Assembly (NCBI GenBank): GCA_963922205.1
Contig: CAWUHX010000112.1
Span: forward strand, 990,598-1,054,597
Length of the DNA stretch: 64,000 nt
Direction of reading: 5' to 3'
Origin: Romanomermis culicivorax
Taxonomy: Eukaryota; Nematoda; Enoplea; Mermithida; Mermithidae
Part shown: positions 3,005 through 43,400 of the stretch, piece by piece
Position numbering within the stretch: position 1 is the first letter of the stretch
How the letters are laid out: each line of letters opens with the position of its first letter
Notes under the pieces: model-generated
The model's input: only the letters and a program-made list of their open reading frames with translations
Databases searched by the model: none
What the model was told of the DNA's origin: nothing
Program-made: the position numbers and the translations under genes

Positions 3005-3005
3005 C

Positions 3006-3020
3006 TGGTGAGCGACTTGG
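3006..3020 (+). other. Primer-binding site of element 1
   Basis: One base after the LTR comes TGGTGAGCGACTTGG. It begins with the TGG expected for pairing with a tRNA 3' CCA. The same position in element 2 reads TGGTGACCC. I cannot assign the primer tRNA without a tRNA set. Confidence 0.6.
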
Positions 3021-3131
3021 TTTGCACACCTCGTTTCCATGCCCTTGGACTGCATCGGACCTCCATTTTCAATTCTGGAAAATCGACCATGCCGCTCTTG
3101 CACTCAAGGATACCAATGAGGATTCTACAAT

Positions 3132-10010: not shown

Positions 10011-10117
10011 AAGCAACCCTTCAATCAACCCACACTATCCGATCCCATATTGTTAGCCCCTGACTACATGCTGCCTCCAGTGGAAGCCATAGCTCTCGCC
10101 TCCCAAGAAGAAATCCA

Positions 10118-11375: not shown

Positions 11376-11461
11376 GGTTGATTCAAAACCTATTTTGTGA
11401 TAGGTGCTCATCACGCCAAGTTGTACATAATCCTCGCCCTTTTGTTTACTTTAGATCATGG

Positions 11462-12049: not shown

Positions 12050-12465
12050 CCCCTCCCCCCTTGCAGTAGATCGCCCTAAGCGATCGTCAAGAAATACCGA
12101 AAAACATGCAAGGGGAAGGGCTCCGCCACTACAGGCCGTCGCCGGGGTTGCCGAAGAATTCTTCGGCGTCACACAGCGAGGCCGGCGGAGTTGTTGGGGT
12201 AGTTTGAGCTGATTTTTGGGGCGGCGACAATAGTGAGTCCAGCGGCGAGGGTAAGGACAAAAACGGGGCAAGTGGGGGCCTGTAGCGAGCCACCGGCGGT
12301 CAACTTACTGTGTGGTTGCAGCGTCGGCTGCACATGCGCTGGAAACACTAGTACAAAAATATAAAGCATGAACGAGATTAGAAATTAAACAACCGGTTTG
12401 AAATGAGGCGAAGAAGAAACAAACAAAGACAAAGAAAACAAAATTACTGTACAAAAAGCTTCGTT

Positions 12466-13725
12466 TTAATGGCGGCGGCGGTGGCGAGTATCAGATGCAG
12501 AGCGGTAGTTTCGAGGAGAATCATGGCCGTCGCGTTCGTTTCGGCCATATCGATCATTATGGTAGCCATGTGGATCCTGAGGGTCGTCGTGGCGGTCAAA
12601 AGGGATATTACGGGAGTAGCGGGATCGACCGTAATCGGCGGTATTGCGGCGACGCGAAGACGAGGTATACGTTTGAGGTTGAAGCCGCGAGAGCGGGTTT
12701 ACGCCTCGGGCTGGCAGTTGAGTGGCGATTAGTGACGGGCGATTGGACGGCAACCCTGTTGGCGGCAACGGTCGCGGTGGCAATAGATTCCACCGGGCGG
12801 AAAAGTCGTGCCGACGCAGCAGGGGTGCGGGGCGATCCGTCTCGCTGTGATACTGCAAATAAATTTGTTGAATGTCGGCAATTTCCGGTGGTTGTGGAAA
12901 TGGGGCGTAGCGTGGATAAGTCATTCAACTGTCTATGAGTCCGACAGCGGTGTTATAGGCTTGTAGCAGACACGAAGGGTTATCCAAACTGCGGGCTTCA
13001 TATAGGAAAAGGGTCAAGTGGGCGGTGTGAACGGTGTCAACGACGCCGAGCTCCTCAGCCCAAAGGCCCGCGACCCATTTCAATATCAGAGTGGCCACGT
13101 CGTGGGAGATGGGCGGTTGTTGTTCTTGATATGTGGGGCAGTAATGATCTCGAAAATATTGGTACAACGCGAGCGAAGCGTTCCTAGCACGGATGTGCAC
13201 GGGCATGATGATGCGAATGCCGAGGCGGCCGAAGAAGTTGATCAATACCATTTCGTGTAGCGTGCGCGGCGAGAAAAACTTGACGGCGGGATCGATATTC
13301 GGCGGGTAGCCCGGTGTTACGAGCCTAACGCAATGCGGCGTATCGGTGGTTCGGAAACGCGTATAGTTCGGTAATCGCGTGGCTTCGCTAGGCAACCGAG
13401 GTTTGATAGTTGGTGCGGAACTTGGTGGCAGGGGAGCTCCAAGAACTGGCCTAGTGGTGATGATCATGGGCGGCTGTTTGAATGCAGCAACCGGAGCCGA
13501 CGTCGGGGCCGTAGGCGGCAGCGACGTGGTGTGGGTTACCGTAGTTGTAGCGGCAGTTGTCTGAACCGTAGTCGGTTGCGATGTGACCATTGGCGGAATC
13601 GTGGTGGCAGTCAAAGTTGCGGCATCCACGTCCATAGGAGGTGGTGGAAGCGGGACTTTGAACTCATCTTTCGGCAGGTTTTTCAAGGCTTCCAGACGAC
13701 GTTGGATCTCAGCATCCCTATGCAA
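12466..13725 (-). pseudogene. Extra 3' ORF of element 3, C-terminal part, one in-frame stop
   Basis: Two frames (13725-12925 and 12924-12466) are continuous except for one TGA at 12925-12927, where the other copies read Trp (LIDS-stop-MTYP here; LINSWMAYP in element 2). The N-terminal part is Thr/Pro/Ala-rich. A conserved block follows: [19 protein letters not shown] ... [14 protein letters not shown] ... [12 protein letters not shown]. The tail is rich in Arg, His, Asp and Ser. I do not recognise the conserved block. It is present in all three elements at the same place, so it is a lineage-specific retroelement protein of unknown role. Confidence 0.7.
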
Positions 13726-14040
13726 CGGGCTAATAAAGTCCGTAAACTTGGGCCGTGACTGGCGGAACTGGTGGTGATGTGCCTCTTCGTAGAAACCGGT
13801 CGAATGTACCTTGCGTGTTTGTTCGCTTTGAGTACGGTGCGGTGGTACATCATCGCGGCGTTCCTGTTGACGACTATCCCGGCCGGTTGGTTGAGTTTGT
13901 TTTGTTTCTCTACAGTGGCGATCATCACGAGAGTGTGATTCGTGACGTGAACGGTGGCTATCGCCTTTGGGTTTCAGCGTTGACGTGGCGTGCGAAGATC
14001 TTTCAGCTCTCTGTTTATCTTGTTACCCCATCTTGCTTTT

Positions 14041-17000
14041 CCTCGCTTTTGGCTGATACTGATTTATTCCAAAGATCTATAACACACCCTCACTGTATCT
14101 GCACAACTCATTGGAAGCCGTCGAAATTGATCAACTGGCCAAAATGCTCATCGCCCTCCCTTCCATAACATTTTGTTAACCGACATCTTGCCTGCCAATT
14201 CGACTGACAAAGTGCTCTTGCAAGTCGCCTTACCAGCAATAATGCGGGACAAGGTTCTTTCTGCATATCAATTTTTTATGTATGATTACACATCATCCAA
14301 CCACAGTCAGTCTTTTGTGTAGGCACCCTAACTGTTTTCAAGACTTCAAAACATCGATGCGTACCACACATCCAAAACTGCTGACCACCCACCAGACATC
14401 TCCGATGATGAAGACCATGCACTTCAACCTGAGAAAATCTACAATGATCTGAAACACCTTCAAGCAGCCGTAGCCTTGGTTATGAAGAGGGGCCTAATGC
14501 ATTGCTTGATCGAGTTACTCAGCTTCCCTGTATCTCGAGTTTATAAGCTCACAGTCCATGAGCATATCAACATTGTAAATGACCCACTGCTCTCCACAGA
14601 TGTTGATGACGTTTGGACCAGGCGCTTGGCAGCAGACCAACCCCTCCGCAATCACACTTACCACAGTACCCATTACCATTATCCCCCTAACACCATTCTT
14701 AGTGTTTTGCAGGCTGATGGATGCTGGCTTCAACAGCCCACCAAAACTATGCCGCTCACAGCGGTTTTAGCTTCACCCTGCTTCTCTACCAAATTCACCT
14801 ACATATACGATCTTTTGGCAAAACATGCCCAAACACTCAACAATGTAACCCACACAGCCTTTTACACTTGTATGTGGTACCGTGCTGACAGCAACCCCCG
14901 TACTTGGCTTACCAATTGGATGAATCACATCCTGGAACGTGAGCCCGCTTTTGACCATGTGCCTGGCACATACGTCTGCAATCACTTTGCCCTGCGCCCG
15001 ATCATCTTTGAGGAAGATTTTCATATGGAAGCTGCCGTGAAAGAAATTGAAATGGACGAAATGGACTACACATCAAACCCTGACAGCCGGATCCACTTCT
15101 ATTCTCACTTGCTTGGCAATATCGATTTTCAAAATTGGTTTTCCTTCCCAGCTCCTATCTATGCATACCCATTGCCGACTACAGCCTCAGTACATGCATT
15201 GATCGCCAAAGAATTGCTGGACCACCCAATGTTGCTGGCCACACTGGAACTGTCCTATGATGAGCTGCTCAAAACTCCCATTTTTGTCCTCAACATCTTG
15301 AAATTGCCTGTGACGGTTCCTACGTCCGCACCAACCAAACCTCCAGCTGGAGCCGATCTTATGGTTTTAGCGGCATCAATCAATGATTTCCTCAAGCTCA
15401 CCCTTGACAACATTTGGTGGCTGGCACCAGTTCCAGTGGAGGAATTGATGCCCATTCAGCCAATCGACATGGACACCAAAGTGAACACTGCCACTTCAGA
15501 CCAAACGTTGACCAATATCGAGGAAGAAACCACAGCTGATAACATCACTGCTATGGACATAGCTCCACCCACACCTGCATTGGATCCTTCGCTCTATTTC
15601 GCCAGGTCCCCCGAGTTGCCAGGCCCCCCAATGATCACCACTGTTGCTGCAGCCAGGTATATTCCCCCTGTTAGATTTTCGCAGCAAATCATTTCAGATA
15701 CTCAATGAAATGCCATGGCCACTGCCCTCAAAGCCTACAGTTTCCTGCCACCACTGCCCCATATGCTGTTCCCGGAACACCACTGACGCAACTACCCGCT
15801 GGCTTTACAAGACCAAATTAAGGAAAATTTGCTGCTGCCTATGACCCCTGCTCCAGCTGCCCAGCAACAAATGCCATCTGTTCCAAGGGCCCCCATTGCC
15901 ACACAATCGGCACCTCAGCGGATGGCTAGGCAATTGCTGCCGATGGTACCTATGGACATTCAACCACTGCAGCCACGGAGCACCTCTACCCCTAATCTCG
16001 ATCACTATGGGCAATGGATTGGCAAACCTGCTTGGTATAAGCATTTGGTCAAACAGAAAACTCAGCAGCAAGAAGAAGTCGAATCCCATAAAGCCCATAA
16101 AACCCGCATGATGGATGAACTACATGCCCAACGTAGACTGCCACCCAGTACATCCTGTACTGAACACGGCAAAACACTGAGCCAATGAACAATCAGATGC
16201 CGTGAACAATGGGCCAAGCAAAAAGAATGACAAATGGCCATTCAAACCAGTTCATCCACTGGCGTGACTGCACAGCCGAAGGTCACACCAACAAAACATT
16301 TGGGTACTCAAACAAAAACTGCTCAAGGCACAGTGCAGCAGCAGCAGATGCCACCAGCATGCCCTTCCAATAGCCACCAATCTCATCACGAGTCACATCA
16401 GCATGACGACCACCACCCCCAAGAAAGGGACTGTTCCCCTGGCCAAGACAACACCACCTGAGACAGCCACAACCAAGATCGTCACGGCGATGCCCCTCAT
16501 CATCGAACCCAGAGCAAACAAACCTGACAAGTGCACTCTACCAGCTTTTACAAGAGAAATTATCAAAACGCTTTCCGCTGTTCGCCACCCGAGTTGACCG
16601 ATTATATTAGCCCACTGCACCGCAAAGCCTAAATCCAACACTGCCTTGAAGCATTGCAAAATCCAAGGACGTAGCCGGAGATCAAAGTCCCATTGCCACT
16701 GGCAGGGCCAATGGATGTCGGACCTACCATTCTGAAATCGGCAATGACCACCATGACTATGATGTCATTGCGGACCATGGCCTTGATGTTGGTCTCTTCT
16801 ACAACAGTTTTGCCAATACCAGCTATGAGCACTCCGATGTTAACAACTACGGCAACCATTCCCTCGCAGCCAAAATTGGTGATCACAATCCATCCAGTAC
16901 TAGGCACCATCCCCCTGGCCGGTACAAACTTGCAATTCCAACTGCATTTGCCCAACTATGTTGCCAAATTATGTTTTTTTTTGCGCGGCCAATCTGCCCC

Positions 17001-17930
17001 ATCCAATTATGCTGGCAATGCCATGTTATCCTCTCCGTATTGAGCTGAATGTCGAGCCCTTCTTGCTGCATACTTTGCACGAGATGGTCCCCATTAACTT
17101 TTTCAGCTGCATCAGAGTTCACATTACAATGGCTGTCCACGTCCAGGCCACAAATGCCTCATTAGCCATTTACCAATATTTCCATGATCACTACTGCATG
17201 TTGCTACCCTCACCTTGTAATGGGTTGCCAGTATTTGGGCTGAAGAACTTGGTGTTGTCAATGCTGTCCAAACCGCCCATGTTGCCTTGTTCCTCTACGA
17301 AGCTCCCAGATTGGACAACCCATTTTGCTTGGTCCAGGCCTATAACACTGCCATTGGCCTCATCCATTCTTGGATAGCGTACCCTCAATACGCTACATTC
17401 CCTCAACCAACCGAATCTGCCAATATTCAACATATCTTTTTGCAATACCACAGCGAAATGGATCGCCTGATTCCCTTGTTACATCCTCACAATTTCTGGG
17501 TGTGCTGGAACCTTCTCCCGCCCCGACCTCTGCTGCCAAGGGGATTGCCATCCGACCACCCTACTATGGTTCCGCTGCCGATTCCTTGGCCCGGAACTAG
17601 TCTGCTATCGCTGATTCCAACTCAAACATACATGTCATCATCCTGCCGCAGGGGTCACGCCAACCATCACAGCTGCACCCACTATCCTTCACAATCCCAT
17701 CGGTTCGACAACCATTATGATAATTGCCATGACCCTCCTTGCCATCATGACCATTGATACCACGATGACTGCTACAACGACCACGATGATTATCAAACCC
17801 ACCCATGTTCCACCTGGGACACATGCCACCACCATCGCCATTGATCCACAACTGTTTTCGTACAGTAATTCCATTTTGTTATTTTCTTTGGTTTCTCACT
17901 TTTGTTTCTCATCCCGTTGTTTTTGTTAAT
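14041..17930 (+). pseudogene. Extra 3' ORF region of element 1 (broken)
   Basis: Downstream of the inverted fragment, element 1 resumes just after the exonuclease part (NSLEAVEIDQLAKML here, [15 protein letters not shown] in element 2). The longest open piece is 14476-15708 (410 residues), collinear with 31171-32442 of element 2: shared FLLHxHAQxL-type stretch, [39 protein letters not shown]. Further pieces include the LHEMVPINFFSCIRVHITMAVHVQATNASLAIYQYF block (about 17075-17190) and a His/Asp-rich tail (17690-17840). Function unknown; no intact frame. Confidence 0.65.
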
Positions 17931-18417
17931 CTCGTTTTTGTGTGCTTTACTATTTGTACTAGTTTTCCTCACCACTGTGCAGCCGATGCTCATCCACTGA
18001 GTAAGACACTCTGACATGTTTATACCGCCACACCCCCCACCTTCATCAAATTGTCCTATTGCTGCCACCGCGTCATTGCGTTTTGTTTTTGCCTCAGGAG
18101 CCGCCTGACCGTAGTGGCCAGCCTCACCCTCCCATCCACATAGACTCGTATGCTGGTGTGCTCCAGATTTATCAGTGCCGACAGAGTGACGACACAGGCT
18201 GCAGTGTTGCTGATATAATTTGGCCTTGCTAATTGCAGACCGCATCAGGAGGTCTCACCCTACGCCCTGCCAAAATCGGCTCAAAACACTACAACAACTC
18301 CGTCAGCCCCACTGTGTGCCGCTGAAGATTCCTTCGACCACCCTGGTGACGGCCTGTAGTAGCAGAGTCCCTCCCCTTGGTTGTTTCATGATGATCGCTT
18401 AAGGCGATTTACCGCAT

Positions 18418-18428
18418 GGGGGGAGGGG
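18418..18428 (+). other. Polypurine tract of element 1
   Basis: GGGGGGAGGGG directly before the 3' LTR start TGTTGTAG. Expected position for plus-strand priming. The same tract adjoins the 3' LTRs of elements 2 and 3 in complement. Confidence 0.85.
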
Positions 18429-18948
18429 TGTTGTAGTGTGTTTCCGCCGATTCGCAGGAGTTTCAAATATCTTATCGATTATTCAAAGATGCATGCAGGC
18501 TCAAAGTGGAGTGAGCTACGCGGACCATCAAAGGGCGTCTTACTGTAGTTCAGTTTCGGTACGCGTGTTGTGAGTGCTCTCGTATTATTATTGTTATTAA
18601 TTTTTTTCATTTACTAGTGTGTGTCCCCACGTTTTGTTATATTTTTCCAGCACGGGGGATTCTAGCTTCATTCTCGACCACACATTGCTTTTGTACGTGT
18701 GTGTTATTCTTAGTAGGTAAAATTATCGAGAGGGAGTTTTCCCTCTTGGGCTTTAACTCATAGGGAATTCAAATTAGGAAGCCAAAGGTTTTCTAATTTG
18801 GGTTAAATTATTGTGGGGTTTAAGTACTTTAAGAAATTAGTTTATCGGGTAAGCATGGGTGCTGGAAACACATGCATTGAGGATGATCTCTGGACCCAAC
18901 TCCTGCCTACCATTATCCGAGAACCCCGACACATTCACAAATACAACA
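18429..18948 (+). repeat. 3' LTR of element 1
   Basis: About 520 bp, TGTTGTAG to TACAACA, collinear with 2483-3004. Differences are frequent, so the element is old or the two LTRs have different sources. Confidence 0.88.
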
Positions 18949-25400: not shown

Positions 25401-28400
25401 GAACAATATACCGTATAGGACTGGAAACTTGTGAGCATACTGACCTTACCTTTAGCAATTTTTCGAGTAAAAGGTTTCACAGAAACAGCTCAATGTAACG
25501 ATTTTGACGACAGTACTGATTTGTGTCACTTTTCTATTTATAAGCACTTTATAAAAAACAGACTATATAAATTCTATGAATTGAGTTCAGTAGAAATATT
25601 ATATGGTATGCAAAACTTCTGCTAAGCCCGACGAAAGTTCAAAACTCGACAGTAAATAAGGCAAGGCAACCTAGGAACAAATATTTGAAATTTTTTACTT
25701 TTCAAGTTGCGCTGAACATTGGTCATATGGACCATAAGACATGGTAGTAAATAGAATGGGCATAATGCTGATCATTCCTCTCCTTGAACAGTCATGAGAA
25801 AATTCGTGAAAATTCATATAAGCTATGAATTTTTGTAAAGTAGTAACATTAGCAATAGAAAAACAATGGAAGTCAATTAATAACTGATGATTCTCTATAC
25901 TGCTGGCTTATCAGTAGATTCTGAGGTTAAATTAAATTAATTTAAAATTAAAAATTTTATATTAAAAAAATTAAAAATTTTAAATTTAAATTTTAAATTT
26001 TAAAAAATTTAAAATTAAAATTTAAAATTAAAACTTAAAATTAAAATTTAAAATTAAAATTTAAAATTGAAATTTAAAATTAGAATTTAAAATTAAAATT
26101 TAAAATTAAAATTAAAAATTAAAATTTAAAATTAAAATTTAAAATTAAAAATTAAAATTTAAAATTAAAATTTAAAATTAAAAATTAAAATTTAAAATTA
26201 AAATTTAAAATTAAAATTTAAAATTAAAATTTAAAATTAAAATTTAAAATTAAAATTTAAAATTTAAAATTAAAATTAAAATTTAAAAATTTTAAATGAT
26301 AGAAGCAGCGAAAACCAAAGAACTCAATTTGATACGCAATTTTCGCGTAATGGAAAACTTCATACTGTAGAAAAATAAACTTCTCCATGAGAGCGGGAAA
26401 AGTTAAAATCATTGAAAAGCATCGTGCTTATCCACTGTCGATTTGGATAGAACTGTGTCGATACCGGAGTTCTAATGGAGAAACTGTGACAACTTGACCA
26501 GGTTATTAAAGAAAATTTTCAGCTGTTTTGTTTACTGATCACTGACGAAAATATATTTTCTTTTACTTCAGTAACGAGCGTAGTAGTTTTTTCGTATTGA
26601 ATTTACTTTCGTGGGATCCCTGCATCTTTTATTTCGAAATGATTGGAGTATAGTAGCAGTTTTCACAGTTTTACACATATATCCGAATGCTTTTTTGAAT
26701 AAGGCTAAAGGATTGGGCATCCTATAATATAATTCTGCCCGACACAGACTTGTCAATATAGTATAACACATTTCAGAATTCACACACAATAATGACGTCT
26801 TGAGGACGTGCTAGTTTTTCACCCTATCTGATTTGTAGGATGGAGACAGTTGACCTCACCTTCACAAGTTCTTTGATCTGCGGCCAGTACATACCCGCGT
26901 TTGCATATGCACCTAAACGATCCAATCGTATTTTCGCAAGTCGCTTGAAAACTGCAAACATTGCCGTTGGCGGCAGCACATTCGTCAACATCTGAAAAGC
27001 ATAGAATGTCTCACTTCATCGAAAATCACAAACGTACAATGTTCATGCCACTTAACTTCACATTGTTTTGTCACACGATTGAACGTGTAACCTCGTTGGC
27101 ATTCGCAAATGTAAGATCCTTCTGTATTTCGACAATATTGACGATTATAGCATCGATGGGTACCCCGAAGGCATTCATCGATGTCTAGAAGCAAAGTGAT
27201 ACGAAATTTCCGCAACACAGTTTTCGCAGGTTGTAGCAGCAGAAATAAATGCTCAACAATGTTCTAATGAAATGAAGCGCGTGACAAAGCTCGTGAGAGG
27301 CGAAATCCTAGGTTAGTTGTCTCAAAAACATGCTAAGTATACGTTAGAACACGAAAATCGCTCTAGCTCTTTATTATCTTGAGAGATGAAGTGTTGTATA
27401 AAATGTTACCCAAATCTCATCCTGACCGGTAGCAGATTTTCAATTGACCTAGTTCAACAAATCTTCACCAACTTGACATGCTTTTGATTCACAGAAGTAC
27501 AAACTTCTGTGGTATAGAATAGGGATATGAAGTCGTCAGCATGAGTTCTTGGACTGCTTGCCCGACTTGCTGATTATCATATAAGACACATTAGCATGAA
27601 AAACAATACAAAAACAGTGTTAAAGTCTAATAATTGAATTATATTCTGTTGCTTGTAAAAAATGAAATCAGGAAGCAAAAACTATTTCAAATTTTTGTCC
27701 TCTCTGCCGTACTACGCGTCAGGTGGAACTGGAAATTTGTGAGCCGACTCATCTACCCTAAAATAATTTTTCAGTAAAGACTTCGTGTAAACAATTTTCA
27801 AGACAACGCTAATTTTTGGTTCACAAGCATATAAAAACACGGAAAACTATGAAATGTAAATTAATAATTATTGGAAGGCCGTCGTGTCTTATCGAACTTG
27901 AACTTTTTCGAGTCGGAGTCTAATTCGACGTGATAGAAAGAAATGATGAACACCTTTGCAGCTCATAGACGAATGTTAAGGTGCCAATTGTTGGGGATGT
28001 ACTTACGGTAGCAGTCATCCCACATCTAAGCAAAATTAGCGATTCGGGCGAAGCCACAATTCGACCAGAAAAAAAGAGTGATTTTAGAATTCGTTATACT
28101 TTTCTGTGTTTGTTGTATTTGTGAATATGGTCGGGGATTGATGAGTCAGGCAGGAGTGGGATCCCAGGGTTCGTCCTTAATCTATGTATTTCCCACGTCC
28201 ACGCTTACCCGATTAGGTGAAGTAAATGTACTTAAACCCGACACTAATTACCCCACAAATTAAGGAAAGGTACTTCCTTAATTTGTCTCACCAATTAAAA
28301 TAAACGCAAGAAAGGAAACCTTTCTTCAATTTTACCTTACGCAACAAAAACACTTACTTACAAAATGAGGCTGGGCGAGAACACAAAGAATTCACTCCCA

Positions 28401-31400
28401 CGCACTATGGAGAAAAAGACAACGGAAAAGGCGTGCGGGGAGGCAATGAGTACAATATAAAAACCAATAATAAACGTACGTTATAAAAACCAATTTTTAT
28501 GCACACACTATGAGAGAGAGCCAGCGCACGCGTACCGGCGTGCGCTACAGTAAGACAGCTGTCGATGGTCTGCGTTGCTCGCTCCACTTGGTACTTGTGG
28601 GCCTCATGCACTGAACGAAAAAAACGATAAAAGTATAGTAAAATCGGCGGAAACACACTAAAACACCCCTCCCCCCTTGTGGTAGATCCCCCTTAGCGAT
28701 TGTCAAGAAACAACTGAGACGTGCAAGGGGAAGGGACTCTGCTACTACAGGCCGTCACCGGGGAAGCCAAACATGAAATTGGCAGCGCACAGTGGGGCCG
28801 ACAGAGTTGTTGTAGTGTTTTGAGTTGATTTGGCTGGCGCATAGGATGAGACCTCCCAACACGAGTGGCAATTAGCGAGGCCCTAAGTTCGGCAACACCA
28901 CAGCTCGCGTTGTCACTCCCTCCGCACTGCTATACTGGAGCGCACCAGTAAAAGAGGCCATGCGGATGGGAGGGTGAGGCCTGCCACTACATTGGGGGCG
29001 ACAACAACACGGGCACAAGGCGGCCAAGGCGAGGAAAGACCAACAGCGCAAGTGGGAGTGTGTGGCCGTAGAACAAGTCAAGCCATCTTACTGCGTGGTC
29101 TCAGCGTTGGCTGCACGTGCCCTGGTGAAACTAGTACAAAAAATAGAGCACGACAAAAGAGATTAGAAAAACAAAACAACCGGTATGAACGAGGTTAATG
29201 AAAATAAGAAAGAGAACAAATGTTACTGTACAAAAAGCTTTGAATCAATGGCGGGGATGGTGACGGGTGTGGGATGCGGACCAAGATTGCTGGTAATTGT
29301 TGCGATGGTTGCGGTTTTCTTGGCGATAGCAGTTGTTGTGATAGCAATGGGGGTCACGGGGATCTTCATGGCCATCAAAATGAATGGAACGGGAGTGGCA
29401 AGGATAGTGGCTGTAATCGGCGGTATTGCATCGGCGGGAAGACGAGGTTAAGGTTTGCGAGCACAGCGGCGAAAGAGGATTCATGCCTGAGGGCGGGAGC
29501 TGCGTCACGATCAAAGAGGGTCGGTCCAAAGACAACCCTGTTGGTGGCAACGATCTCGGTGGCAGCAAGTTCCACCAGGCGGAGAAATCGTGCCAACGCA
29601 GCAGGGGCACGGGATGGTCGGTTTCACTATGGTATTGAAGATAGATTCTTTGGATTTCAGCAATTTCCGGGGGTTATTGAAATGGCAAATATTGCGGGTA
29701 GGCCATCCAGCTATTGATTAAGCTGACGGGGGTGTTATAAGCCTGCAATAGACACGACGGATGGTCTAGGCCCTGCGCTTCATACAAAAAGAGTCCAAGA
29801 TGAGCAGTGTAGATGGCCTCGACTACGCCGAGTTCCTCAGCCCAGAGGCCAGCGACCCATCGCAAAATTAGCGCAGCAACGTCTGGCAATATGGGTGGTT
29901 TTTGTTCTTGATACGTAGTGCGATATTGAGCCCGAAAGTATTGATATAATGCCAGCGAAGCATTGGTTGCATGAATGTGGATGGCCATGGTTACGCGAAC
30001 ACCAAGGTGGCCGAAAAAAATGATCAAGACCATCTCGTGCAAGGTCCGCGGAGAGAAAAATTCGATAGAGGATCGGTACGAGGCGGATAGCACGGCAATG
30101 CCAACATGATACAGTGCAGTGAGTCCTTGGTTCGAAAATTTGTGTAGTTTGGCAATCGTGTGGCCTCGTGGGCAAATGTGGTTCGAAACGTGTGCTACGG
30201 TTGGCAGGGGGGCTCCGAGTACTGGTCGTGTGGTGATGACCAATGATGGTTGAGCAGGCCCGGTTGACTGAACCGACATGGGGGCCCTAGGCGGCAGGGA
30301 TGTGGTGTGTGTTACAGTGGTTGGCGTGGCCGACATCAGGCCGTAGACAGCAGCGACGTGGCCGTAGGTGGCAGCAATGTGGAACATGATGTGGCTGGTT
30401 CATAGAAACCGGTAGAATGCACCTGACGTGTTTGTTCGCTTTGAGTGCAGTGCGGTGGTGCATCGTCACAGCGTTCTTGTTGACGGCTGTCACGGCTTGT
30501 AGTGTCTTTTCGTGGCGATTGTTTGGTTTCTTTTCGGTGGTGGTCATCACGGGAATGAGACTCATGACAGGAACGATGGCTATCTGATTGGGGGGCAGGC
30601 GGCGTTTGTTTGGCTGGTGCTGCTGTCTTTGTAGTCGTGATTTTTGGCTGCAGTGTCGCACTAGTCTGAGAACTAGTTTGATCGGTCGTTTCTCGAGCTT
30701 TCTGTTGGGCGCGTTGTTCGCGGCGACGGGTTGTTCGTTTACTGGGCGTCTTGCCGTGTTCAGTACGTGGAATACTGGGCGGCGGTGTTGGTCAAGTACG
30801 CAGTTCATCTGTTGTACGCGTTTTGTGAGACTTGCGGTATTCAGCTTCTTCCAAAGGATGTTGTTTGTGTTTTGCAGTGTGTTCCTAACGTCCGCGTTTT
30901 TGGATAGGTTGGCCATGAGGATCTAAAGCCGGTGCGGACGTGCTGGGAGCCTGTGGGGTTTGAACATCTATAGGCGCCATTGGCAGTAATAGAGTCGCAG
31001 GCAGCCATGGCTGAGGTACTGGCGGCAGCGGCAGTGCGGCTGGCGGCTGTACAGCATTAACCAGAGCCGGTTGAGTTACTTGAGGGACCGCCAAAGCTGG
31101 TGTCAGTTGCAGAAGCAAAATACATTGGATTTCCTCATTGAGCGCATCCGGATAATCCATCCAATGGTGTTCAGGGAACAACACACTGGCGGGGGGGACG
31201 GGAAGTGATACACGGTGAGGGCTGCAGCCAATGCTTGCCATTGAGGATTTGAAATAATTTGTTGTGAAAAACGAACAGGAGCACAATACCTGGTAGTGAC
31301 AACAGTGGTGATAATCGGAGGTCCGGGCAGAATTGCCATAGTGGCCAAATTGATGCGGGGGTCCACAGCCGGCGCCGGTGGAGGTGCTGTGGTTGCTGGT

Positions 31401-34400
31401 TCTGTGGGCACGATGTCCATGGACGTGGACTGGTCGACAATGCCTTCTTCAGGATACCAGTTAACCTTTGCTCTGCAGTGGTGGTGTTGGTTTTGGCATC
31501 CATCCCCATGGTTTGGACTGGAGTAGATTCGTCCATCGGTACCGGGGGGAGGGTCGATATGTCATCAAGCATCAATTTCAGAAAATCGGTTATTTGCGTG
31601 GCCGTCGCCATAAGGTCAGCTGTGGCAGCAAGCGTAGGAAGGGCCAACACAGCAGTTGACGGCGGCAGCTTGGCTATATTCAATTCGAAAACCAGTGTGT
31701 CCAAAAGTTCTTCCTCAGCGGGCTCTAGGTCTAGGGCCGAGGTTGGGCAGTCCAGGAGTTCCTTGGCTGTGAGCATGTGCTCCGAGGCTGTAGTCCGCAA
31801 CGGGTACGTGTACACTGGCACAGGGAAAGAAAATCGATTTTGGAAATGGATGATGTTGAGCAAATGCAGATAGAAGTGAAAACGGCTATGGGGATTGGTT
31901 GTGTAGTCTGATTCGTCGATATCGATTTGTTCAACAGTGGTTTCCATTTGGAAATCCTCATCGAAGATGATGGGGCGAAGGGCGAACCAGTTACAGATGA
32001 AAGTTCCGGGTTCGCTTGTGAAAGACGGCTCTCTTTCGGGTATTTGATTCATCCAATCTGTGAGGCGTGTTCGAGGATTGCTGTCAGCGTGGTACCACAT
32101 ACATTTGTAAAAGGCGGTACATGTGGCTGGATCCAAATTTTGAGCGTGGCTAATTAACAAATTGTTGATGTAGGCATATTTGGCGGGGGAACAAGGCGAA
32201 GCCAAAAGTGCGGCCAATGGCATGCATGTTGTTAGGCATTGAAACCAGTCTCCATCCACCTGCAAAAGACTAAGATTCGTGGAAGGGAGATAATGGTGAT
32301 GGGTACCCTGGTAGGTTTGATCGCGGAGCGGTTGGTCGGCAGGGATGCGGTCGATCCACACATCGTCAACCTCATGAGGAATTGGTGGCAAAGCTGGGTC
32401 GGGTTCGAATTGAATGCGATCGCAGATGGCTAGTTTGTACATAAAAGACCGGAAAATTGAGCATTTCGATAAGTCGGTCCGTGAGCTCGCCCTTCATGGC
32501 CGAAGTGACGGCTGTTTGAAGGCGTTTTGGGTGGTCAAACAACGATTTAGGTTGGAGAGACGGGTCTTCATTGTCTGACACCTCCGGCAACTTGTTCCAT
32601 TTGTCTTTTTGCTTCTTCTTCTTCTTTTTCGGTGCTTTCGGGGTGGTGAGAAGCTTGGGATGCGTCGTGCGCATCAATATTTTGAGGTTGCGAAAACCGT
32701 TGGGCACTGTTCCTAAACAAAAAGACTGACCGTGGTCGGAGGATGTGCAATCGACCATGAAAAATTGGTATGTGGAAAGAACCTCGTCTCGCATAATGGC
32801 TGGAAGGGCGATTTCCGAGATAGTGGGATAAGTTGTATCTGCGGAGTCGGCGGGTAGAACATCCCATAATGCGATGTTGTGAAAAGCGGCCATTAACGTC
32901 TCTGTGAGCTGGTCGATTTCAGCAGCATCCAACGAGTCGTGAGGGAATAACGCAGGAGCCTTGTACTCTTCGGGGACAAAGCCATAATGGCCCAAAGCCA
33001 AAAACAACAAAAGCTGGTAGTAAGCGTCAAGGGCCGCGTACGCGAGGACGTCCAATTCTAGGAATGATGTTGCCGGGTTGTTGAAAAATAGCAGGGCGGC
33101 TGGGAACTTTAGCGTGTGTTTCAAAACATCCAGCGCCTACATGGTGGAAACGGTAGCTTTCAAGATATGCTTTTCGGGGAAAACCCTATCTGATGAGCCA
33201 GCTCGTACAGTGGCAGGGAGATATCGATGTTTCTGATTATGTGGTACACGTCGAAATGGATCACTTTGAGGACGGGATCCTTATTCTTCTTTTGGGGATC
33301 GGTCCGGAACTGGGTGCCTAGAAATGCATATATTCCCCCCCAGTCATCGGCTCCATCGAAGGAAACAATGATGGTGTGGTCACGGTCAACCAGGGAGAAT
33401 AATGCAGTCCAGTCTTCCGGTGTGGCGCTGAAAGTTTCGAAAATGAACATCGTGCCATTGGGGAATGCGAGTTGAACGTATTGCGGATAGCTGGACGCCG
33501 TGGAATCGGCTGGCATGGGCACTATAAACTGGAAACTTTTCATATCCGCGGCCATGATTGACTCAGTATCGAAGCCAACCAGTGTGTAGCCACAGAAATT
33601 TGGCGTAGTCTGGGCCGCCAGGGCCGCCCCCAAATTTCTGGGTGAAAAAAAGATCAGCGGCAGCAACACATTTGGAGGTCTGGCAAACAAGGAGACGTAC
33701 CAACACTCCAAATCAGTGGCGTGAATCATTTGTTTGACATTATTTTCTTAAACAAGAGCAAGCGCGATATTCGGCATATGACACAGTGGGCTCCAATTCG
33801 AGGGAGCGAAATGGATTCAAAAGGTTGACTTTAGAATGGATATGGTGTTGCTTGCTGTACAAAAAAGGGAGAGCAGGCCCCGGGGAGACGGCAGCTTGGG
33901 CGACAATGTCACTTTGACAGGCGCATCTTGTCAATTGGATCGGGCTATGATAGCGAGAGATGAGAGTTGGCATATGCAGGGGTAAAAGCAACAGTTGGTT
34001 GTGGCGTAGTAGTTGCCACAACTTGACAATGGCTGGATCGCGGCGGCTGACCATGGGCTCTGGTGCTGGGCTACAGAGTGGGGGGGGTCCCATGAGGTCC
34101 CAAGCAGAAGAGAGCATGCAAGGTTAAAGCAAAAAAATATGCAAAGAAATATGTACGATCGCAGCAGAAGCTAAGATTGTTCTGATGTGGCTGCTGTTCT
34201 GCCCGTGGTACGTAACATTCATTGACGTTTATGGATTGGCGGTACGGCAGGGGTTCATCGGCTGCGGAGGCGGAAGAAGTTGACGGTGTTGTCATGTTGA
34301 AAAAAAAAATATTTTTGAGAGCAGCTGGAAAATACGACTATTGCGGGGGGAAGCGAGAAATAGAAATAAAATAAGTAAAGAATAAGCCGCTGAAATGTTG

Positions 34401-37400
34401 AGAAACTGTAAAGTTGGAAAAATTGTGAAGTAACACAACAATAAAGCAATACTGACACCACTATGTTAATGGGAGCTGAAATCAACCTTTCCCAGTTAGT
34501 CTTATGAGAGTGAATGCGGCCAGGGTCAGGTGGAAATAAACAGAATGGCTTCGCGCAGAACAGAACCTAACATTAAAGAAGATACCCCCTCCTACGTGGA
34601 AGTGTGGAAAACAGGGAGTTGTGTAAGGGGATGGTGTAAAGTTGGTGAAGTTTTCCCTGGTGATGTATCGGGCGGAGAGAATGTAACCGAACGGATTACA
34701 CTTAGTCCGTAGTTGTTGTCTCGTCAACATCCTTGCCAGGATCTAAATTAAACAAAATGTGGGAATTATGTACAACTCGGCGTGATGTGCACCATATCAC
34801 AAAATAAAATTTCAAAGCAGACTATTGATGTCGTGAAGTGTGAGGCAAATGCGGTCCACCAGCTTCAAGTTCAAAGACTTTTTTTGGGGGGGTGCCATAT
34901 GAATGGTTTCAAATGCAGCATGGAAACAGTTTGCGGCCGGCCAGGCGTGTTGAGTGAATCCATGGTGATGACGTTTTCGGCAACGTGGGATGCGTCCATG
35001 ATGATAAAAGGACCAATGAAATCGGGTTGGATTTTGTTCCCCTTTCGTGTGTTGGTCAAAAGGACAAGGTTGTTGAAGGCGAGGTTGCGTGTTCGGGCTT
35101 TTTGATCAAAATATTCTTTACTGACCGCAGCGGCTGTATCAAGGTTAGCTTTGATTTTCTCGTGCATCTTAAGCTGTGCTTGCATGAGGATATGTTGGTA
35201 GGTGTCGTAATTGAGCCGTAACATGAGTCGGCAGGCGCAATCATAATCGAAAGTTATGCCTGGTTCCTAGCCTCGTAATAGGCTGAAGGGCGAATGGCAC
35301 ATGGCTGCTTTGCAGCATGGCGTTACAGGCGAACATGGTGTATGGTAAGTAGCATTCCCAATTATCCGGATCATCTGTGGTGTACTTCCTTAGTTGAGCA
35401 ATTAACATTTGGTTGAAACGTTCGACCATTGCCTTGCACTGGGGGTGGTACACAGTTGTTTTGACTTTTTGGATTTTGAGTAGGTCGCAAATGTTCTGCA
35501 TTAGCTTTGATGTGAAACATCCACCTTCATCAAAGAGAAGGACTAGCGGGCTACCATGGGTGAGGACAACATTGTTCATGAAGCCTTCAACGATGGTTGA
35601 GGCTTTTTGATCCCCGATGGAGTGTGCTGAAACCCATTTCGTGAAATAATCCTGAAAAACAATAATGTATGGACGTTTTTCACCTTCTGGGGATATGTTG
35701 ACAATATCCGTGGCGATGATCTCGAAAGGGTGCATGGGTTGGATTGGTAATATCAGCAGAGGCGGCAATGTGCGCGGTGTTGTCAATTGGCAAATCTTGC
35801 ATGACTTGATCCAGTTGGGGACGTTTTCTTCCATGCGGGGCCACCAAAAGTGGGTTTTGATGGCTGCTAACCTATGATTAGATCCTTGGTGGTTCAATAT
35901 CTTTCCGCCGTGGAATTGAGGAAGAGTTTGATCGACCATGGATGCGGGAACAACCAGTTGCCTGCTATCTTTAATTTGTCGGTACAGAAGTCCATCTTCT
36001 GTGAAGAAAATCAGTGGGTGCTTTGCGGCATTGTGGATTTGGAGAGAGGCGACGATTGTGGTGATAGCAGGATCGGCGGCCTGTGCTCGTGAGACTTTGT
36101 CATGGGAGGCAATTGTTATATGGCTTCGACCTGAGCGGGCGCGTAATTGGCGGCCAATGGTATAGAATCGGGGAGTGTGGATTGACTGATGGCCTTTTTG
36201 GTAATTGCCCGAGTGACGGCATTGACGTCTGCATCGATTTCTATGGGCGGCTAGGCCATTGCTCGGAGTATATTGGGTACCGTTGAGTCAGCGCCTGATA
36301 ATGGACCAGCAGGGCGAAAATTTGTTCTGAAAATTTCAGCGGTTAGATCTTCAGTATTCCGAATTGGTGGTTTCTTTCGGTAATCTTTTCTTGACAAAAA
36401 ATCGAGACAAGTGTTGTCTTTGCCTTTGACGTATCCAACTTTGTAGTCATAATCTTGGAGGTTTATCACGAAACGTTGGAGGCGTGAATTTCGGTGCTTT
36501 TCATCTTTGAGCCAATCGAGGGCTTATGATCCGTATGAACAATAACTTTTTGGCCATAGACGTAATGGGGGTACATTCCGAAACCATAGACAATGGCGAG
36601 GCATTCACGCTCTGTTGTACTGTATAGGGTTTCGGTGTTGGTGAGTACACGGCTGTTGTAGGCGATGACCCATTGATCGTGTCCATTTTCCTGGTATAAG
36701 ATTGCTCGAATTGCAGTTGTGCTGGCTTTGGTTTGTATGACAAATTGTAGACCCGGTAGGGGAGGAAGGGCAATGACGTAAGAGCTTTGGTGATACCATT
36801 GAACACCATGTGGTGTTCTTCCATGGCGATGTATTGAGCATCTTTTCATTGGAGTCTGTACAAAGGACTGGACAAGGTGGCCAATTTTGGGATAAATTGT
36901 TTGCACCATTGGACAAAAACCTAAAAAACTTTGCATACGTTTCTTGGTAGTCCGGAATTCGTATTCTGCAATGGCCTTGACTTTGTCCAGATCGGCAGTG
37001 ATTGATTTGGCGTTAAGGAGGTGGCCCAAAAATTTGACTTCTGGCGGCAGGAATTCGCATTTGTTGGGCCGAAGCGTAAGATTGGCTGTGCAGAGGGGGT
37101 CAAAAACCATTTGTAAATGTTCCAAATGTTCTTCAATCGAATTCGAGAAAACTATAATATTGTCAATGTAGACGAGGCAGATTTTCTAAATGTAGGGGCA
37201 GAGGATTCTTTCCATTAAGCATTGGAATTCGGCAGGTGCGTTGTTCAAACCGAACAGCAAAACTTTGAATAGAAACAAACCTTCTTAGCAGATGAAGGTT
37301 GTTTTATAGTGGGAGTCGTTGTTGATGGGGACCTGCCAATATCCACCTTGAGATCAAGTGTGGTGAAGAATTTTGCTTGTCCCATGACGTCCAAGTAATC

Positions 37401-40400
37401 CTCAATGTGTGGAATTGGGAATTTGTTGCTGGGCGTAACATCGTTTATTCCACGGTAGTCGTCGATGGGTCGCCAAGAGCCATCATTTTTCTTTACCAGG
37501 AGAAACGGTGCAGCCCAGGGTGAGTGGGATTGTTCGATGAAGTCGTTGTCGAGCATTTCTTGGATATGGCCATGAACAATTGGTCTTTGCTCCATCGCAG
37601 TGCGGTAGTAATGGCTGGATACAGGCTTTGCGGTGCCGATGTCAATGTTGACCGTCAATTTGTTGGTGAACATTGCTTTGTCACCAGGAAGGCTGAAAAC
37701 ATCATGGTTCTGGCGTAGCATGCCGAGGGCCTTTGATTTTTGTACGGCGGTAACGTATGTTTTTGAGGTCATTTTGGTCAATGCAAAATCCTATTTTTGG
37801 TGATCCCTGTGGCATGGAAGCAATTTATCGAGTGCAGCGGGTTCATGGTCAGTTAAATCACAGTCTGCGGCGGTGGTTGCTACTTGACATTCGTCGTGGA
37901 TTTCCCTAAAGCCAAGCGCCTGTTTTGCAACTGCGTGTAATTGATTCACGTGAAGCTTGATGCTGTTGTGCATATTGTTGACAAATAGGAGCGGACATTG
38001 ACCGTTGGTGATGTTGATGACTGCGGTTTCAATTGGGAGCTCTGCAGCTATGCTGGTGGTTGGCAGTGGTTGAACGATCACGTGGGGAATGGTTTCCGTT
38101 GTTGTAGGAAAGATGGTGCTGGTTACCCATTGCTGGCAATGGGGCGAAATCGAAACCGATACTTGGGCGACGAGGAAAATTGGCTCGGCAAGCTCCGTAA
38201 CCTCCAGCCCCCATGATGGCGGTTGGTGTGGACTAGGTTTAGCCTGCCATATCGGTTGTTTGGCTTCGATTTCTTGGGGTTGGCTGAAAGTATCGGATTT
38301 GTTGTCATAAAAACTTACTCGCTCCTGTTCGGGGATTTCTTCGAGACCATTATCATTCACGGCATTTAAAAATAATTCCCTTTGCGGGCAAACTGAGGCA
38401 ATTACTTTGAGCAGTAGCTTCACGTCTTGAATTTCGATGTAATTTTCCTTGAAGTTTAGGATCGCATGAATATCGGGGTGGGCCAGAAAATCAGTACCCA
38501 TGATACATTGATCGTTTCTGTCATCGTCAAGAATTACACACTTGATCATATGTTCACGGAACGTGGATTCCATTGTGACTACCACTGGACGGAGGGCATT
38601 GACAACAGCGCCATCGGCCACTTTGATTTTACCACATATCAGGAGTTGGAACGATTGCTTGTCGAATGCGCATTTGACTAGTCCTGAGGACAATACCGAG
38701 CATTGGGCACTAGTGTGGATGAGCGCATCTGCCTTGACGGCGCCAAGTTTGATGGGGATTTGGAAAGCTCGCGTGGAGGCGTATTTGCGAACGAAAGTCT
38801 TTGATGACGGCATGAGGTTGTCAATCTGGCAAACAGATGAGCGGATGTGACGTGGATTGTGGGAAGCATGGACCATTGCATTCCAACAAACGATTCCTGA
38901 GCTAACAATCGGTGCGGCGGACGCTATTCCTTTGGAAGGGATTACCATGTTGGCAGCGGAAGTTGATTGGTTGGGCACGTGCATATCCAAAGCAGTCACG
39001 GAAATGGTTGAGGATGACGGCAAGGCCGGTAGCGCGAGTGGGAGTTCAAAGGATTGGGAGCTGGCACGTGAGGAATCCGTGGGTGTTGTAACATATGGAG
39101 CTGGCACAGCATTATAGTGAATGTGTTGTTCCCACAGCAACGGGAAGTTTGGATTTGGGTATATGGCGTAGGTGTTCTGAACAAAATCATTTGGACGATT
39201 TAAAGAGTTACCTTCAAAAAAAGTTCCTGGCCCCGTGGGAGTAATTCGAACCTCTCTGGGACAGTGCTCCATGGCGTGGTCTCCAATCCCATTGGCCACG
39301 GATATTGTTAGAGCTGATTCGGAAATTGGTTGATGGTAGTTGAACGGTGTGAGTTGGATGGTTGAAATATTGCCAATTGTTTTGTTGAGCATTTTGCCGC
39401 TTGAGCCAGATGCAATCTTTGGTATTGTGGGTGCGTGACTTGTGAGCGTCACACCAGAGACCTGTCGGTGGCATGGGACGAGGGGTGGTCGCGACTTGCA
39501 CATCGGTCGAAGCGGTTGGCATAAGTATTTCGGGGTTGAGATTGGTGGCGAGGGCTTTGCTGGCGTGTACCGGATGGGTAATCTTCAAGGCGTTGCTGTG
39601 ATTTGCGTTCTTCATGGTCGGTGTCGTATCGTTGGATCAATTGCTCCAGGTGCATCTCCGTGTGCAGTTGCGACTGCAGAGGTTGTTCTAGCGACAGTGG
39701 TTGAAAAGAGACGAATTTTGTGGCTGGCGGCACCATAGATTGCGGGTGGCGATCAGTGGAAAGCGTGCGGTCGCGATAGCAGTCCTGTGATCGGTCTGTG
39801 CTACAGCTACGTCAAAACGGTGATCGAATGGCTGTGGCGATCTTGGTTGTGGTGTTTCCTGATCGGCTTGGTTAACAAGTATTGGTTGCTCCGCAGTTCC
39901 AATTTCAGCTTTAGTTGTGTTGAGGATGCTAGGGGCTTTGGTGACGGCGTTGGCCAATTGTTGGACATTTGTAAAATTTTTTGCTTGCTCGCCGATTGTT
40001 AATTGGTAGAAAACAGGCATTTTGTCAAAAAGGTGTCAATTACTTGTTTGTGCTGAAAGTTTGGTCCTCATCTTGGTATAACAATTGTACATATGTCATT
40101 ACCTTACTCAAAAATGCGGCAAGTTCCTCTCCAGCTTCAGGGGTGATTGACGCGAGCTCGCGCTTGAGAGCCATTTGGTTACAATCCAGGGCTAATTGGA
40201 ACATGAAGAAATTTTTTGCATCTTCATACCGTGTCATATCTTGAAGCATGTCGCTCGGCGTATCGCCGGTAAGCCGGCGGAGTGCGCTCATCTTGATGTG
40301 GTTTGAGGTGTCGTATCCAAACTTGTTCTCCAAGCAAATGAAGAAACGTAGGAGGCATTTGTTTGTCGCGGCTCCATCGATGGCGAGTGGGTGCACATTG

Positions 40401-43400
40401 TCAACAATAGTTTTGATTTGACTGTCTTCTTCGCGATGAGACATGCATGGCAAATCGTACCAAGGTTGCGGGTGGTCATACTAGTTGTGGGGCGGGTAGT
40501 CCGAGAAACCAAATGGGTTGGCCGTGGGCGGCGGGCATCTTTGAGGTGCGGAGCAGGATATTTCATCTTCACCCCATGCGTTACGAGAGAATTCATTATT
40601 ATACAAAGTGTCAGTGGATGGCGCTTTACGTTTGACATGTGCTGGTGGCCGACTGAAAGCCAGAGCCCGTTCAGTTTCACGGAGAGTTTCGTTTAGGATA
40701 TAGATATTGTGCGTTTCCTCGCCGTGAAACCGTGAGGTCACTGGCGGTAGTCTTGGTGTAGGCAAGTTACGTGCTGCGGCTGCGGCGGTGGTCATTGAAA
40801 TTAATTGCTGCATTTGTTCTGCTAGGGTGGTGAAGCGCGCGTTTGTGGATTGCACTTGCTCTTGAATTTCACATTGAACACGTAGTTGCTGGGCTTGAAA
40901 TTTGGACTGTTGGAACATTGTTGGTTATCTGCGTGGCGGCAGTGCTGAGCTGTTCTAGAGCGTCCCGTGCTTCAATTTGAAAATTGTGAACTTCATTTGC
41001 GTTTGCAATTGCTAAACTGCTGTGGTGGTTGGTTACTGAAGAACGGGTGGCAGCTGGGGCCTGCTGTGGATTAATGTTGAGGAAAGACTCTGAGGAATCC
41101 CTTCGGGCGATGGTTGTGTCATTGTTGGCCTGTGCAGCGGTGCTGGGCAGCGGTATCTGAGATATGGCCAGCGTGCTAGCACATACAGTGGCAGCGATGA
41201 CTGAATTTTGACTTAATGGTGGCATTGGGAGTAAGTGTATCCGTGCGGATGCGGTGGGAATGAGGGGTACCTAGGCTTGTAAGGTGCCATCCAATGCAGA
41301 GTTACTAAAAATACAGGAGGGCTGATTAGGGGGTGGTAGGCTTACCGTGGGCACCGCAGAAGATTGCGCAATATTTGCTGTCAGCGGCGGCATTATTTGG
41401 TCAAAATTTAGGGTGCAGCGCATGGCCATGGTTGCATTAGGCGAGCTTGATCATGACGGGAGACATATGAGATCCGGCTGCATTTGGCTTACTTTCAGCA
41501 TCTTTTTCCGGAGGGTATAATAACCTTTTTTATAACCTTGGGTGTAACTACGGTGTGGTCGAATTTTGAAGATGGGAACCGTATTCGGATGCAGCGCAAT
41601 GGCGGGGAAAGGAAGTGACAATCCAAAGGGTCACCAGTGTTGTATTTGTGAATATGGTCGGGGATTGATGAGTCAGGCAGGAGTGGGATCCCATGGTTCG
41701 TCCTTAACGTACGTATTTCCCACGCCCACGCTTACCCAATTAGGTGAAGTAAATGTACTTAAACCCAACACTAATTACACCACAAATTAAGGAAAGGTAC
41801 TCCCTTAATTTGTCTCACCAATTAAAATAAACGTAAGAAAGGAAACCTTTCTTCAATTTTACCTTATGCAATAAAAACACTTACTTACAAAATGAGCCTG
41901 GGCGAGAACACAAAGAATTCACTCCCACGCACTACGGAGAAAAAGACAACCGAAAAGGCGTGCGGGGAGGCAATGAGTACAATATAAAGACCAATAATAA
42001 ACGTACATTATAAAAACCAATTTTTATGCACACACTATGAGAGAGAGCCAGCGCACGTGTACCGACGTGGGCTACAGTAAGATGGCTGTCGATGGTCCAT
42101 GTTGCTCGCTCCACTTGGTACTTGCGGGCCTCATGCACGAAACGACAAAAACGATAAAAGTACAGTAAAATCGGCGGAAACACACTACAACATGTTGTGG
42201 ACGAGTCCCGTCCATTAAACATAGTATTTGTTTACTTTTCGCCTAGTGAAACGGAACGCTGACAGCCCCAACTACATTACATATTATTACATTATTAATA
42301 TTATTATTAATACTTATTTTTATTCTTGCGTATCTAGCAGAGGCCGATTTACCGGGACCAAGTATCAAAGTATGCCCCAGCCTTTCCAGGATATTGTTAT
42401 TAGTTCCTTATATTTGTGTCAGCCTTTAGGAAACATCTGGGGCGACCCTGATTGCTTTTCGATTGCAAGAGTTAGAAATTCCAGTTACTTATTAGCGACT
42501 GAAGGTTGTGTTTAGTTCTGCTAGAGAACTGTTGCACTGTGTTCAGCTGATTACTTATAGGAAGCTCCTTTGATTGGCCTATGGTGGTTAGTTAGATACA
42601 AGCCAATAGACTCTTTAGTTATATTGCTGACATCTTCAGACCTAAGCAGAGTATTAAACGTAACACAATTGCTCTCAATCTTCGAGATGTTGTTGATCCA
42701 CTTTGGATTTTTTCAAAAGTATTGCTAATACAAGAAATTCGAAATGTCAAAAAATGATTACTTCTGAAAAATTTTTATTGTCGTTTAATCCTTTGCCCTT
42801 CACAAGATGGCTTTGTAGATCACTTTTGTTAATGCAGATTTGTAGATTTAGAGATCAATTGGACTACAACCTGCCAAAACTGCAATATCTTTCCGTTCAA
42901 CAGTTTATTGAGCCGAAAAACTTTTTTTAATCCATCTTTATAACCTTACAGCTAACATTCGAAATAATGTGATTAATAGTATTTTCTCACACTGTTTTGT
43001 CAAAAAATTATTGACATACTATAGCAAGCCATCACAATTACAAGCCGAAGCTTTATTCCCTGGATTGTCGACCCTCTTGCAATAGAACTTTAAGCCCATG
43101 TCAAAATGTTTATGAAATCAGTTGGAATACTTAATAAAGAATGTTTGATAAGCAAAAACTTAAGCAAGTATCATACATTCAATTGTCATCTGCCCGGAAG
43201 CACTGAAATCCCAGAGGAACTTTTCTTTTGCGCTGACTTTGTTTAGATCACAGAAAATATTTTCTGATTGTTTTTCTGACAGTAATCCACTCCGTCTATA
43301 CCTACCCACACACTGCCCAAGGACTCGATCCATTTCGTAGCCTTCCCGACAAACGGAATTTTGATTGACACAGTAGAATGAGCCGGGTGTGTTGACGCAG

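What the first reader, a model, noticed from the sequence alone, without database searches (positions are those of the whole stretch)
32372..34295. LTR retrotransposon carrying a WRN/RNase D-type DEDDy exonuclease downstream of integrase
Seen: Exo I (GFDTES), Exo II (DGADDW) and Exo III (YAALDAYY) in the right order and spacing, inside a 14 kb element bounded by LTRs and a target duplication. Known: Ty3/Gypsy elements carry gag-pol and sometimes env; I know of no standard lineage with a 3'-5' exonuclease after integrase. Inference: captured from a host Egalitarian/WRN-like gene, perhaps trimming cDNA or RNA ends or countering host small-RNA silencing.
Basis: partly seen in the sequence, partly recalled or inferred. 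Interest (0 to 1): 0.86.

Follow-up and report, generated by a model that had tools for sequence, protein, structure and literature searches.

The report
Nematode retrotransposon with exonuclease-like third gene
A 14 kb jumping element in a mosquito-parasitic nematode carries, after its integrase gene, an extra multi-copy gene whose first part looks like a very diverged 3'-5' exonuclease, a kind of add-on already described in rotifer retrotransposons.

Summary
On the minus strand, inside a 14,082-bp LTR element (28111-42192; LTRs 94% identical), the stretch after integrase carries ExoI GFDTES, ExoII FDGADDW and ExoIII YAALDAYY in order, in this copy split over two frames. The host is Romanomermis culicivorax: all 108 relatives found are its predicted proteins. 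Some hold all three motifs in one predicted protein that runs into a second module. Three other gene models keep the integrase-to-ORF3 order. A ~70%-identical second element keeps ORF3 downstream of ExoIII (pN/pS 0.35-0.43; integrase 0.26-0.32) but has lost the exonuclease core. So ORF3 belongs to the family; it is not a one-off capture. The DEDDy assignment is weaker: no Pfam, PHROG, NCBIfam or PDB profile places it, and two AlphaFold models are of low confidence. Only a non-blind ordered-block profile test supports it (z 3.6-4.8). 'No precedent' is wrong: DEDDy ORF3s were published for bdelloid LTR elements in 2017 (PMC5408684). Capture from Egalitarian/WRN and piRNA countering are unsupported. 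A new variant of a known kind.

The parts
28111..42192 (-). Element 1: LTR retrotransposon, 14,082 bp
   Evidence: LTR pair 524/555 identical; RT/RNase H and integrase domains
41638..42192 (-). 5' LTR
28111..28665 (-). 3' LTR, preceded by a purine-rich tract
39412..39453 (-). gag zinc-knuckle-like motif C-X2-H-X4-H-X4-C
37794..39584 (-). 597-aa frame with a weak aspartyl-protease match
   Evidence: Pfam E 0.031 and 0.045, below cut-off
36469..37790 (-). Reverse transcriptase and RNase H, in two frames
   Evidence: PF00078, PF17917, PF17919
34874..36287 (-). Integrase (H2C2, rve, C-terminal GPF), in two frames
   Evidence: PF17921, PF00665; GPF read from the translation (motif name as in PMC5408684)
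34157..34295 (-). ORF3 N-terminus (MTTPSTSS...), possible first exon
   Evidence: similar N-termini in relatives P0002, P0007, P0009, P0011
33747..34156 (-). Possible 410-nt GT-AG intron within ORF3
   Evidence: predicted gene models P0002, P0007, P0011 join near here; no transcript seen
33163..33747 (-). Exonuclease-like domain, N part, with ExoI (33576-33559) and ExoII (33360-33340)
32375..33136 (-). Exonuclease-like domain, C part with ExoIII (33040-33017), and linker, in another frame
31174..32493 (-). ~440-aa ORF3 C-terminal module of unknown fold; its start lies in one predicted protein with the exo region in P0060, P0061, P0063
   Evidence: pN/pS 0.35 over 329 codons against element 2
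29248..31448 (-). Further downstream open frames; a 241-aa piece (29677-30399) has related copies
   Evidence: pN/pS 0.34 over 203 codons against the nested third fragment, 0.51 and 0.59 against element 2
2482..18948 (+). Element 2 (ends approximate): diverged relative, pol ~70% nt identity, keeps ORF3 downstream of ExoIII
11461..14015 (-). Nested inverted fragment of a third related element, lying where the exonuclease core of element 2 is missing (ends approximate)

Best explanation
This is a multi-copy Ty3/Gypsy-type LTR retrotransposon family of Romanomermis culicivorax. In the post-integrase slot (usually env or nothing) it carries a large ORF3. The N-terminal ~250 aa of ORF3 are a very diverged DEDDy-type 3'-5' exonuclease-like domain, followed by a ~440-aa module of unknown fold. 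Shown: position, multiplicity, single-protein gene models in relatives, and conserved coding sequence downstream of ExoIII between two diverged elements. Inferred: the DEDDy fold. Inferred further: an auxiliary replication role, most simply two-metal-ion trimming of 3' ends of element RNA or cDNA (or binding of such ends) inside the particle or nucleus, with the C-terminal module targeting it. The window copy itself is broken and makes no full ORF3.
For: 113 related R. culicivorax proteins. P0059, P0060 and P0061 carry ExoI, II and III in one predicted protein. P0052, P0067 and P0085 join integrase C-terminus to the ORF3 start in gene models of other copies. ORF3 pN/pS 0.35 (module) and 0.39-0.43 (exo C-terminal part) against integrase 0.26-0.32 and RT 0.21-0.47. 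hhalign raw score 28.8-30.7 against shuffle maxima 20.0 and 25.0 and 20.6 for the reversed profile.
Against: No DEDD family in Pfam for 17 of 17 sequences, nor in PHROGs or NCBIfam for 6 of 6, nor any PDB sequence hit. hhalign probability is only 13-17%, ExoII is misregistered, and ExoI lies outside the first alignment. HMMER with an RNase D profile scores relatives no better than shuffles. AlphaFold pLDDT 49.3 and 51.6; no fold search ran. Candidate catalytic D, E, D are present in 33/42, 35/43 and 57/76 aligned relatives, about the mean column (0.78), while some other acidic positions reach 0.92-1.00; only 4 of 10 proteins covering all five positions keep all five. The block test's blocks and spacings were chosen after seeing the motifs, its four frames are not independent, its FDTQ block falls just after ExoII and not at a convincing site; on nine single relatives z is 1.2-5.1, and the best of 28 integrase decoys outscores three of them. 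The selection test does not cover the catalytic core, which element 2 lacks.
Confidence: 0.58

Rival explanations
1. ORF3 is a DEDD-derived but catalytically dead nucleic-acid-binding protein, comparable to Maelstrom or EXD1, serving as an RNA/cDNA chaperone or targeting factor.
For: Candidate acidic residues are lost in many relatives and the first three are about as conserved as an average column. Inactive DEDD derivatives that bind RNA are discussed in PMC5408684 (passage).
Against: The commonest residue is still D, E, D, Y, D at the five sites; losses are mostly D>N and E>K, as decay of dead copies could give.
Confidence: 0.2
2. The three motifs are coincidental: ORF3 is an element-specific protein of unrelated fold (structural or accessory).
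For: Every standard profile search fails; structure models have low confidence; a loose motif trio occurs 0.3 times per shuffled window.
Confidence: 0.25
3. ORF3 is an env-like protein for cell-to-cell spread.
For: Its position downstream of integrase is the classic env slot (general knowledge). Three of seven pieces have a 19-residue hydropathy peak of 1.67-1.85, just above the customary 1.6 mark (mark recalled).
Against: One of these peaks is the ExoIII helix itself; no peak reaches 2; 0-2 N-glycosylation sequons per piece; no Pfam env match in the four ORF3-region pieces scanned. No transmembrane or signal-peptide predictor was run.
Confidence: 0.08
4. A one-off host gene insertion into a single element.
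For: None beyond the broken window copy.
Against: 113 related proteins, the same integrase-to-ORF3 order in three other gene models, and a second diverged element with ORF3 remnants.
Confidence: 0.01

Closest known systems
Bdelloid rotifer Juno and Vesta LTR retrotransposons with DEDDy-type ORF3 (Rodriguez, Kenefick and Arkhipova 2017, PMC5408684)
   Same: LTR element, RT-RH-IN order, an additional ORF after integrase with DEDDy-type motifs
   Different: Nematode host; no dUTPase match between PR and RT; exonuclease part too diverged for Pfam; followed by a ~440-aa module and ~2 kb of further open frames; possible intron. Sequence relationship could not be tested because the rotifer sequences were not at hand.
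Terminons (giant Athena Penelope-like elements of bdelloids; PMC6431247, passages)
   Same: Accessory DEDDy 3'-exonuclease ORFs in a retroelement
   Different: Penelope-type RT; described as endonuclease-deficient, not LTR elements
RNase D / WRN / Mut-7 DEDDy exonucleases
   Same: Motifs ExoI-II-III in order, beta2 block, Y-x3-D ExoIII (compared here with bacterial and phage RNase D and PolA exonuclease sequences only)
   Different: No significant profile similarity; longer ExoI-ExoII (75 vs 57) and ExoII-ExoIII (106 vs 70) spacing than E. coli RNase D

Membership tests
DEDDy 3'-5' exonuclease | ExoI DxE, ExoII D, ExoIII YxxxD in order | tested here: met
   (two frames in the window); in one predicted protein in P0059, P0060, P0061, P0021
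DEDDy 3'-5' exonuclease | Placed by a family profile (DNA_pol_A_exo1 / RNase D) | tested here: not met
   0 of 17 sequences in Pfam; RNase D HMM no better than shuffles; hhalign 13-17%
DEDDy 3'-5' exonuclease | Ordered conserved blocks score above chance | tested here: met
   z 3.6-4.8 on four query frames of one profile, decoys -1.3 to 2.2; not blind; single relatives z 1.2-5.1
DEDDy 3'-5' exonuclease | RNase H-like fold | tested here: inconclusive
   pLDDT 49.3 and 51.6; fold searches never ran
DEDDy 3'-5' exonuclease | Catalytic residues under constraint | tested here: inconclusive
   33/42, 35/43, 57/76, 44/47, 43/47
DEDDy 3'-5' exonuclease | Metal-dependent 3'-5' activity | not testable with these tools
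   needs protein
Ty3/Gypsy LTR retrotransposon | LTRs, purine tract, RT-RH-IN order | tested here: met
Ty3/Gypsy LTR retrotransposon | RT phylogeny within Ty3/Gypsy; tRNA primer site | not tested
   no tree was built; sequence after the 5' LTR was printed but not matched to a tRNA
Bdelloid Juno/Vesta type | DEDDy-type ORF3 after integrase | tested here: inconclusive
   position met; DEDDy identity only moderately supported
Bdelloid Juno/Vesta type | dUTPase between PR and RT | tested here: not met
   no dUTPase match in frames 37248-37790 and 37794-39584 at E<=1
Bdelloid Juno/Vesta type | Sequence homology of ORF3 to Juno/Vesta ORF3 | tested here: inconclusive

The most novel reading that the evidence does not exclude
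LTR retrotransposons in two distant animal phyla (rotifers, and here nematodes) independently filled the env slot with a DEDDy exonuclease. This would mean that a 3'-end-trimming nuclease solves a general problem in LTR replication, here in a host reported to lack piRNAs, so that a piRNA-related role is unlikely.
Probability: 0.3. Interest if true: 0.7.

Novelty: new variant of a known kind. Interest (0 to 1): 0.47.

Why it matters
If the fold is confirmed, a nuclease ORF3 has been recruited outside bdelloid rotifers. Recruitment of end-trimming enzymes by LTR elements would then be a recurrent theme rather than a rotifer oddity, and it could be tested in a host reported to lack piRNAs.

Tried and rejected
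Host-gene capture as a one-off insertion: rejected by copy number and order. CpG decay as the reason for loss of candidate catalytic Asp/Glu (R. culicivorax is methylated, PMC8821070, passages): dropped, because only one of the four acidic codons starts in a CpG and element 1 CpG o/e is 0.91. RNase D relatives for a deeper profile: the alignment query was not accepted, E. coli RNase D found nothing and a phage PolA exonuclease one near-identical locus in viral contigs, and genome contigs returned the best 80 of 558 relatives, all close; none was used further. Viral contigs gave no relative of the ORF3 piece. The third protein search, on integrase, returned only R. culicivorax at E<=1e-10 (28 of 28). 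The PHROG matches are to two families of unknown function over 41-52 residues (best E 0.00069) and were not pursued.

Full report
What is there. The window holds a 14,082-bp LTR element on the minus strand (28111-42192). Its LTRs are 555 bp and 94% identical, with a purine-rich tract before the 3' LTR and a possible but ambiguous 4-bp duplication TGTT. Pfam places RT, RNase H and integrase in that order; the protease match is below cut-off. After integrase, ORF3 starts at 34295. ExoI, ExoII and ExoIII lie at 33576-33559, 33360-33340 and 33040-33017. This copy is broken between ExoII and ExoIII by a frame change and a stop.

Host and copies. The 58 proteins related to the ExoI/II piece (E<=1 among 769 candidates) and the 108 found with a family alignment (E<=1 among 6223 candidates) carry Romanomermis culicivorax names (some cut off in the listing); together they are 113 proteins. 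No other organism is listed. P0059, P0060 and P0061 hold ExoI through ExoIII in one predicted protein, and P0060, P0061 and P0063 run on into the next module (P0063 lacks ExoI and the ExoIII region), so ORF3 reads as one protein: exonuclease-like domain plus at least the start of a ~440-aa module. These are gene predictions; they could step over frame breaks by predicted introns, and no transcripts were seen. P0052, P0067 and P0085 join the integrase C-terminus to ORF3, the same order in other copies. A genome-wide count was not possible: the genome search did not complete.

Second element and selection. Element 2 (about 2482-18948, plus strand) has pol about 70% identical at nucleotide level. 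A nested inverted fragment lies where its exonuclease core should be, but the part downstream of ExoIII and the 440-aa module survive. pN/pS is 0.35 (329 codons, bootstrap 0.29-0.41) for the 440-aa module and 0.39-0.43 for the exonuclease C-terminal part (108 and 122 codons, two overlapping frames, with stops in element 2). For comparison: integrase 0.26-0.32, RT/RNase H 0.21-0.47, gag 0.15-0.26, the protease frame 0.29-0.58, and the downstream 241-aa piece 0.34 against the nested fragment but 0.51 and 0.59 against element 2. Synonymous sites are saturated in most comparisons, so these are ratios of proportions, not true omega values. The catalytic core itself was not covered.

Is it a DEDDy exonuclease? 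Sequence profiles say no or nothing. Pfam finds no DEDD family for 17 of 17 sequences (2 window pieces, 15 of the 113 relatives). PHROGs and NCBIfam find none for 6 of 6 relatives. PDB sequence searches are empty. An RNase D HMM built from 11 bacterial and phage sequences scores relatives like shuffles. hhalign gives raw scores 28.8-30.7, above shuffle maxima 20.0 and 25.0, but only 13-17% probability, with ExoII misregistered. Two AlphaFold models are of low confidence (mean pLDDT 49.3 and 51.6), and no fold search could be run. For it: an ordered-block test of the family profile against RNase D blocks gives z 4.6, 4.8, 4.6 and 3.6 on four query frames (0, 0, 0 and 1 of 300 column shuffles reach the score), against z -1.3 to 2.2 for six decoys. 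ExoI, beta2, ExoII and ExoIII fall where expected in three frames; in the fourth (P0061, truncated start) ExoI does not, and the FDTQ block falls just after ExoII in all four. I chose blocks and spacings after seeing the motifs, and the four frames share one family. On nine single relatives the same test was weaker, z 1.2-5.1, and the best of 28 integrase decoys (10.6) outscored three of the nine. The candidate catalytic residues are the commonest residue at each site (33/42, 35/43, 57/76, 44/47, 43/47) but the first three are about as conserved as an average column (0.78), and some other acidic positions are more conserved. My reading is a diverged DEDDy domain, more likely than not; its activity is open.

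Mechanism. The position after integrase and conservation of the downstream part at roughly pol-like levels argue for a functional part of the element. An env is less likely but not excluded: hydropathy peaks reach only 1.67-1.85 in three of seven pieces, one of them the ExoIII helix, and no membrane predictor was run. Trimming or binding of 3' ends of element RNA or cDNA is the simplest inference. A role against piRNAs is unlikely in a host reported to lack them (PMC4323106; passages).

What is known. DEDDy ORF3s in LTR retrotransposons were described in bdelloid rotifers (PMC5408684; abstract, passages and one section read) and are mentioned in later papers (PMC6431247, PMC5718144, PMC6338049; passages). 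I saw no report for nematodes in the listings of searches; most listed papers were not opened. The 2013 R. culicivorax genome paper has no occurrence of retrotransposon, exonuclease, Gypsy or LTR in its main text. The long-read genome paper reports that more LTRs were identified in R. culicivorax (PMC10879605; passages). This is therefore a new variant of a known kind.

Noticed in passing
24567-24908, 26985-27263, 43160-43477, 43498-43782, 45292-45582 (-): Calcium-binding-EGF-like frames (read by eye from translations, not profile-tested) lie on the same strand on both sides of element 1, as if it sits in an intron of a fibulin/fibrillin-like host gene.
   Followed up: partly
54148-54489: Array of about 55 copies of TTAGGC, the nematode telomere unit (recalled), inside the window.
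   Followed up: no
25939-26288: AT-rich 13-bp tandem array, about 27 copies.
   Followed up: no
11461-14015: Third related element fragment nested in inverted orientation in element 2.
   Followed up: partly
39412-39453 (-): gag knuckle-like motif is C-X2-H-X4-H-X4-C rather than CCHC.
   Followed up: no
P0060 (UniProt A0A915K5M7): UniProt names this ORF3 relative 'DNA-directed DNA polymerase'; no Pfam match explains the name.
   Followed up: partly
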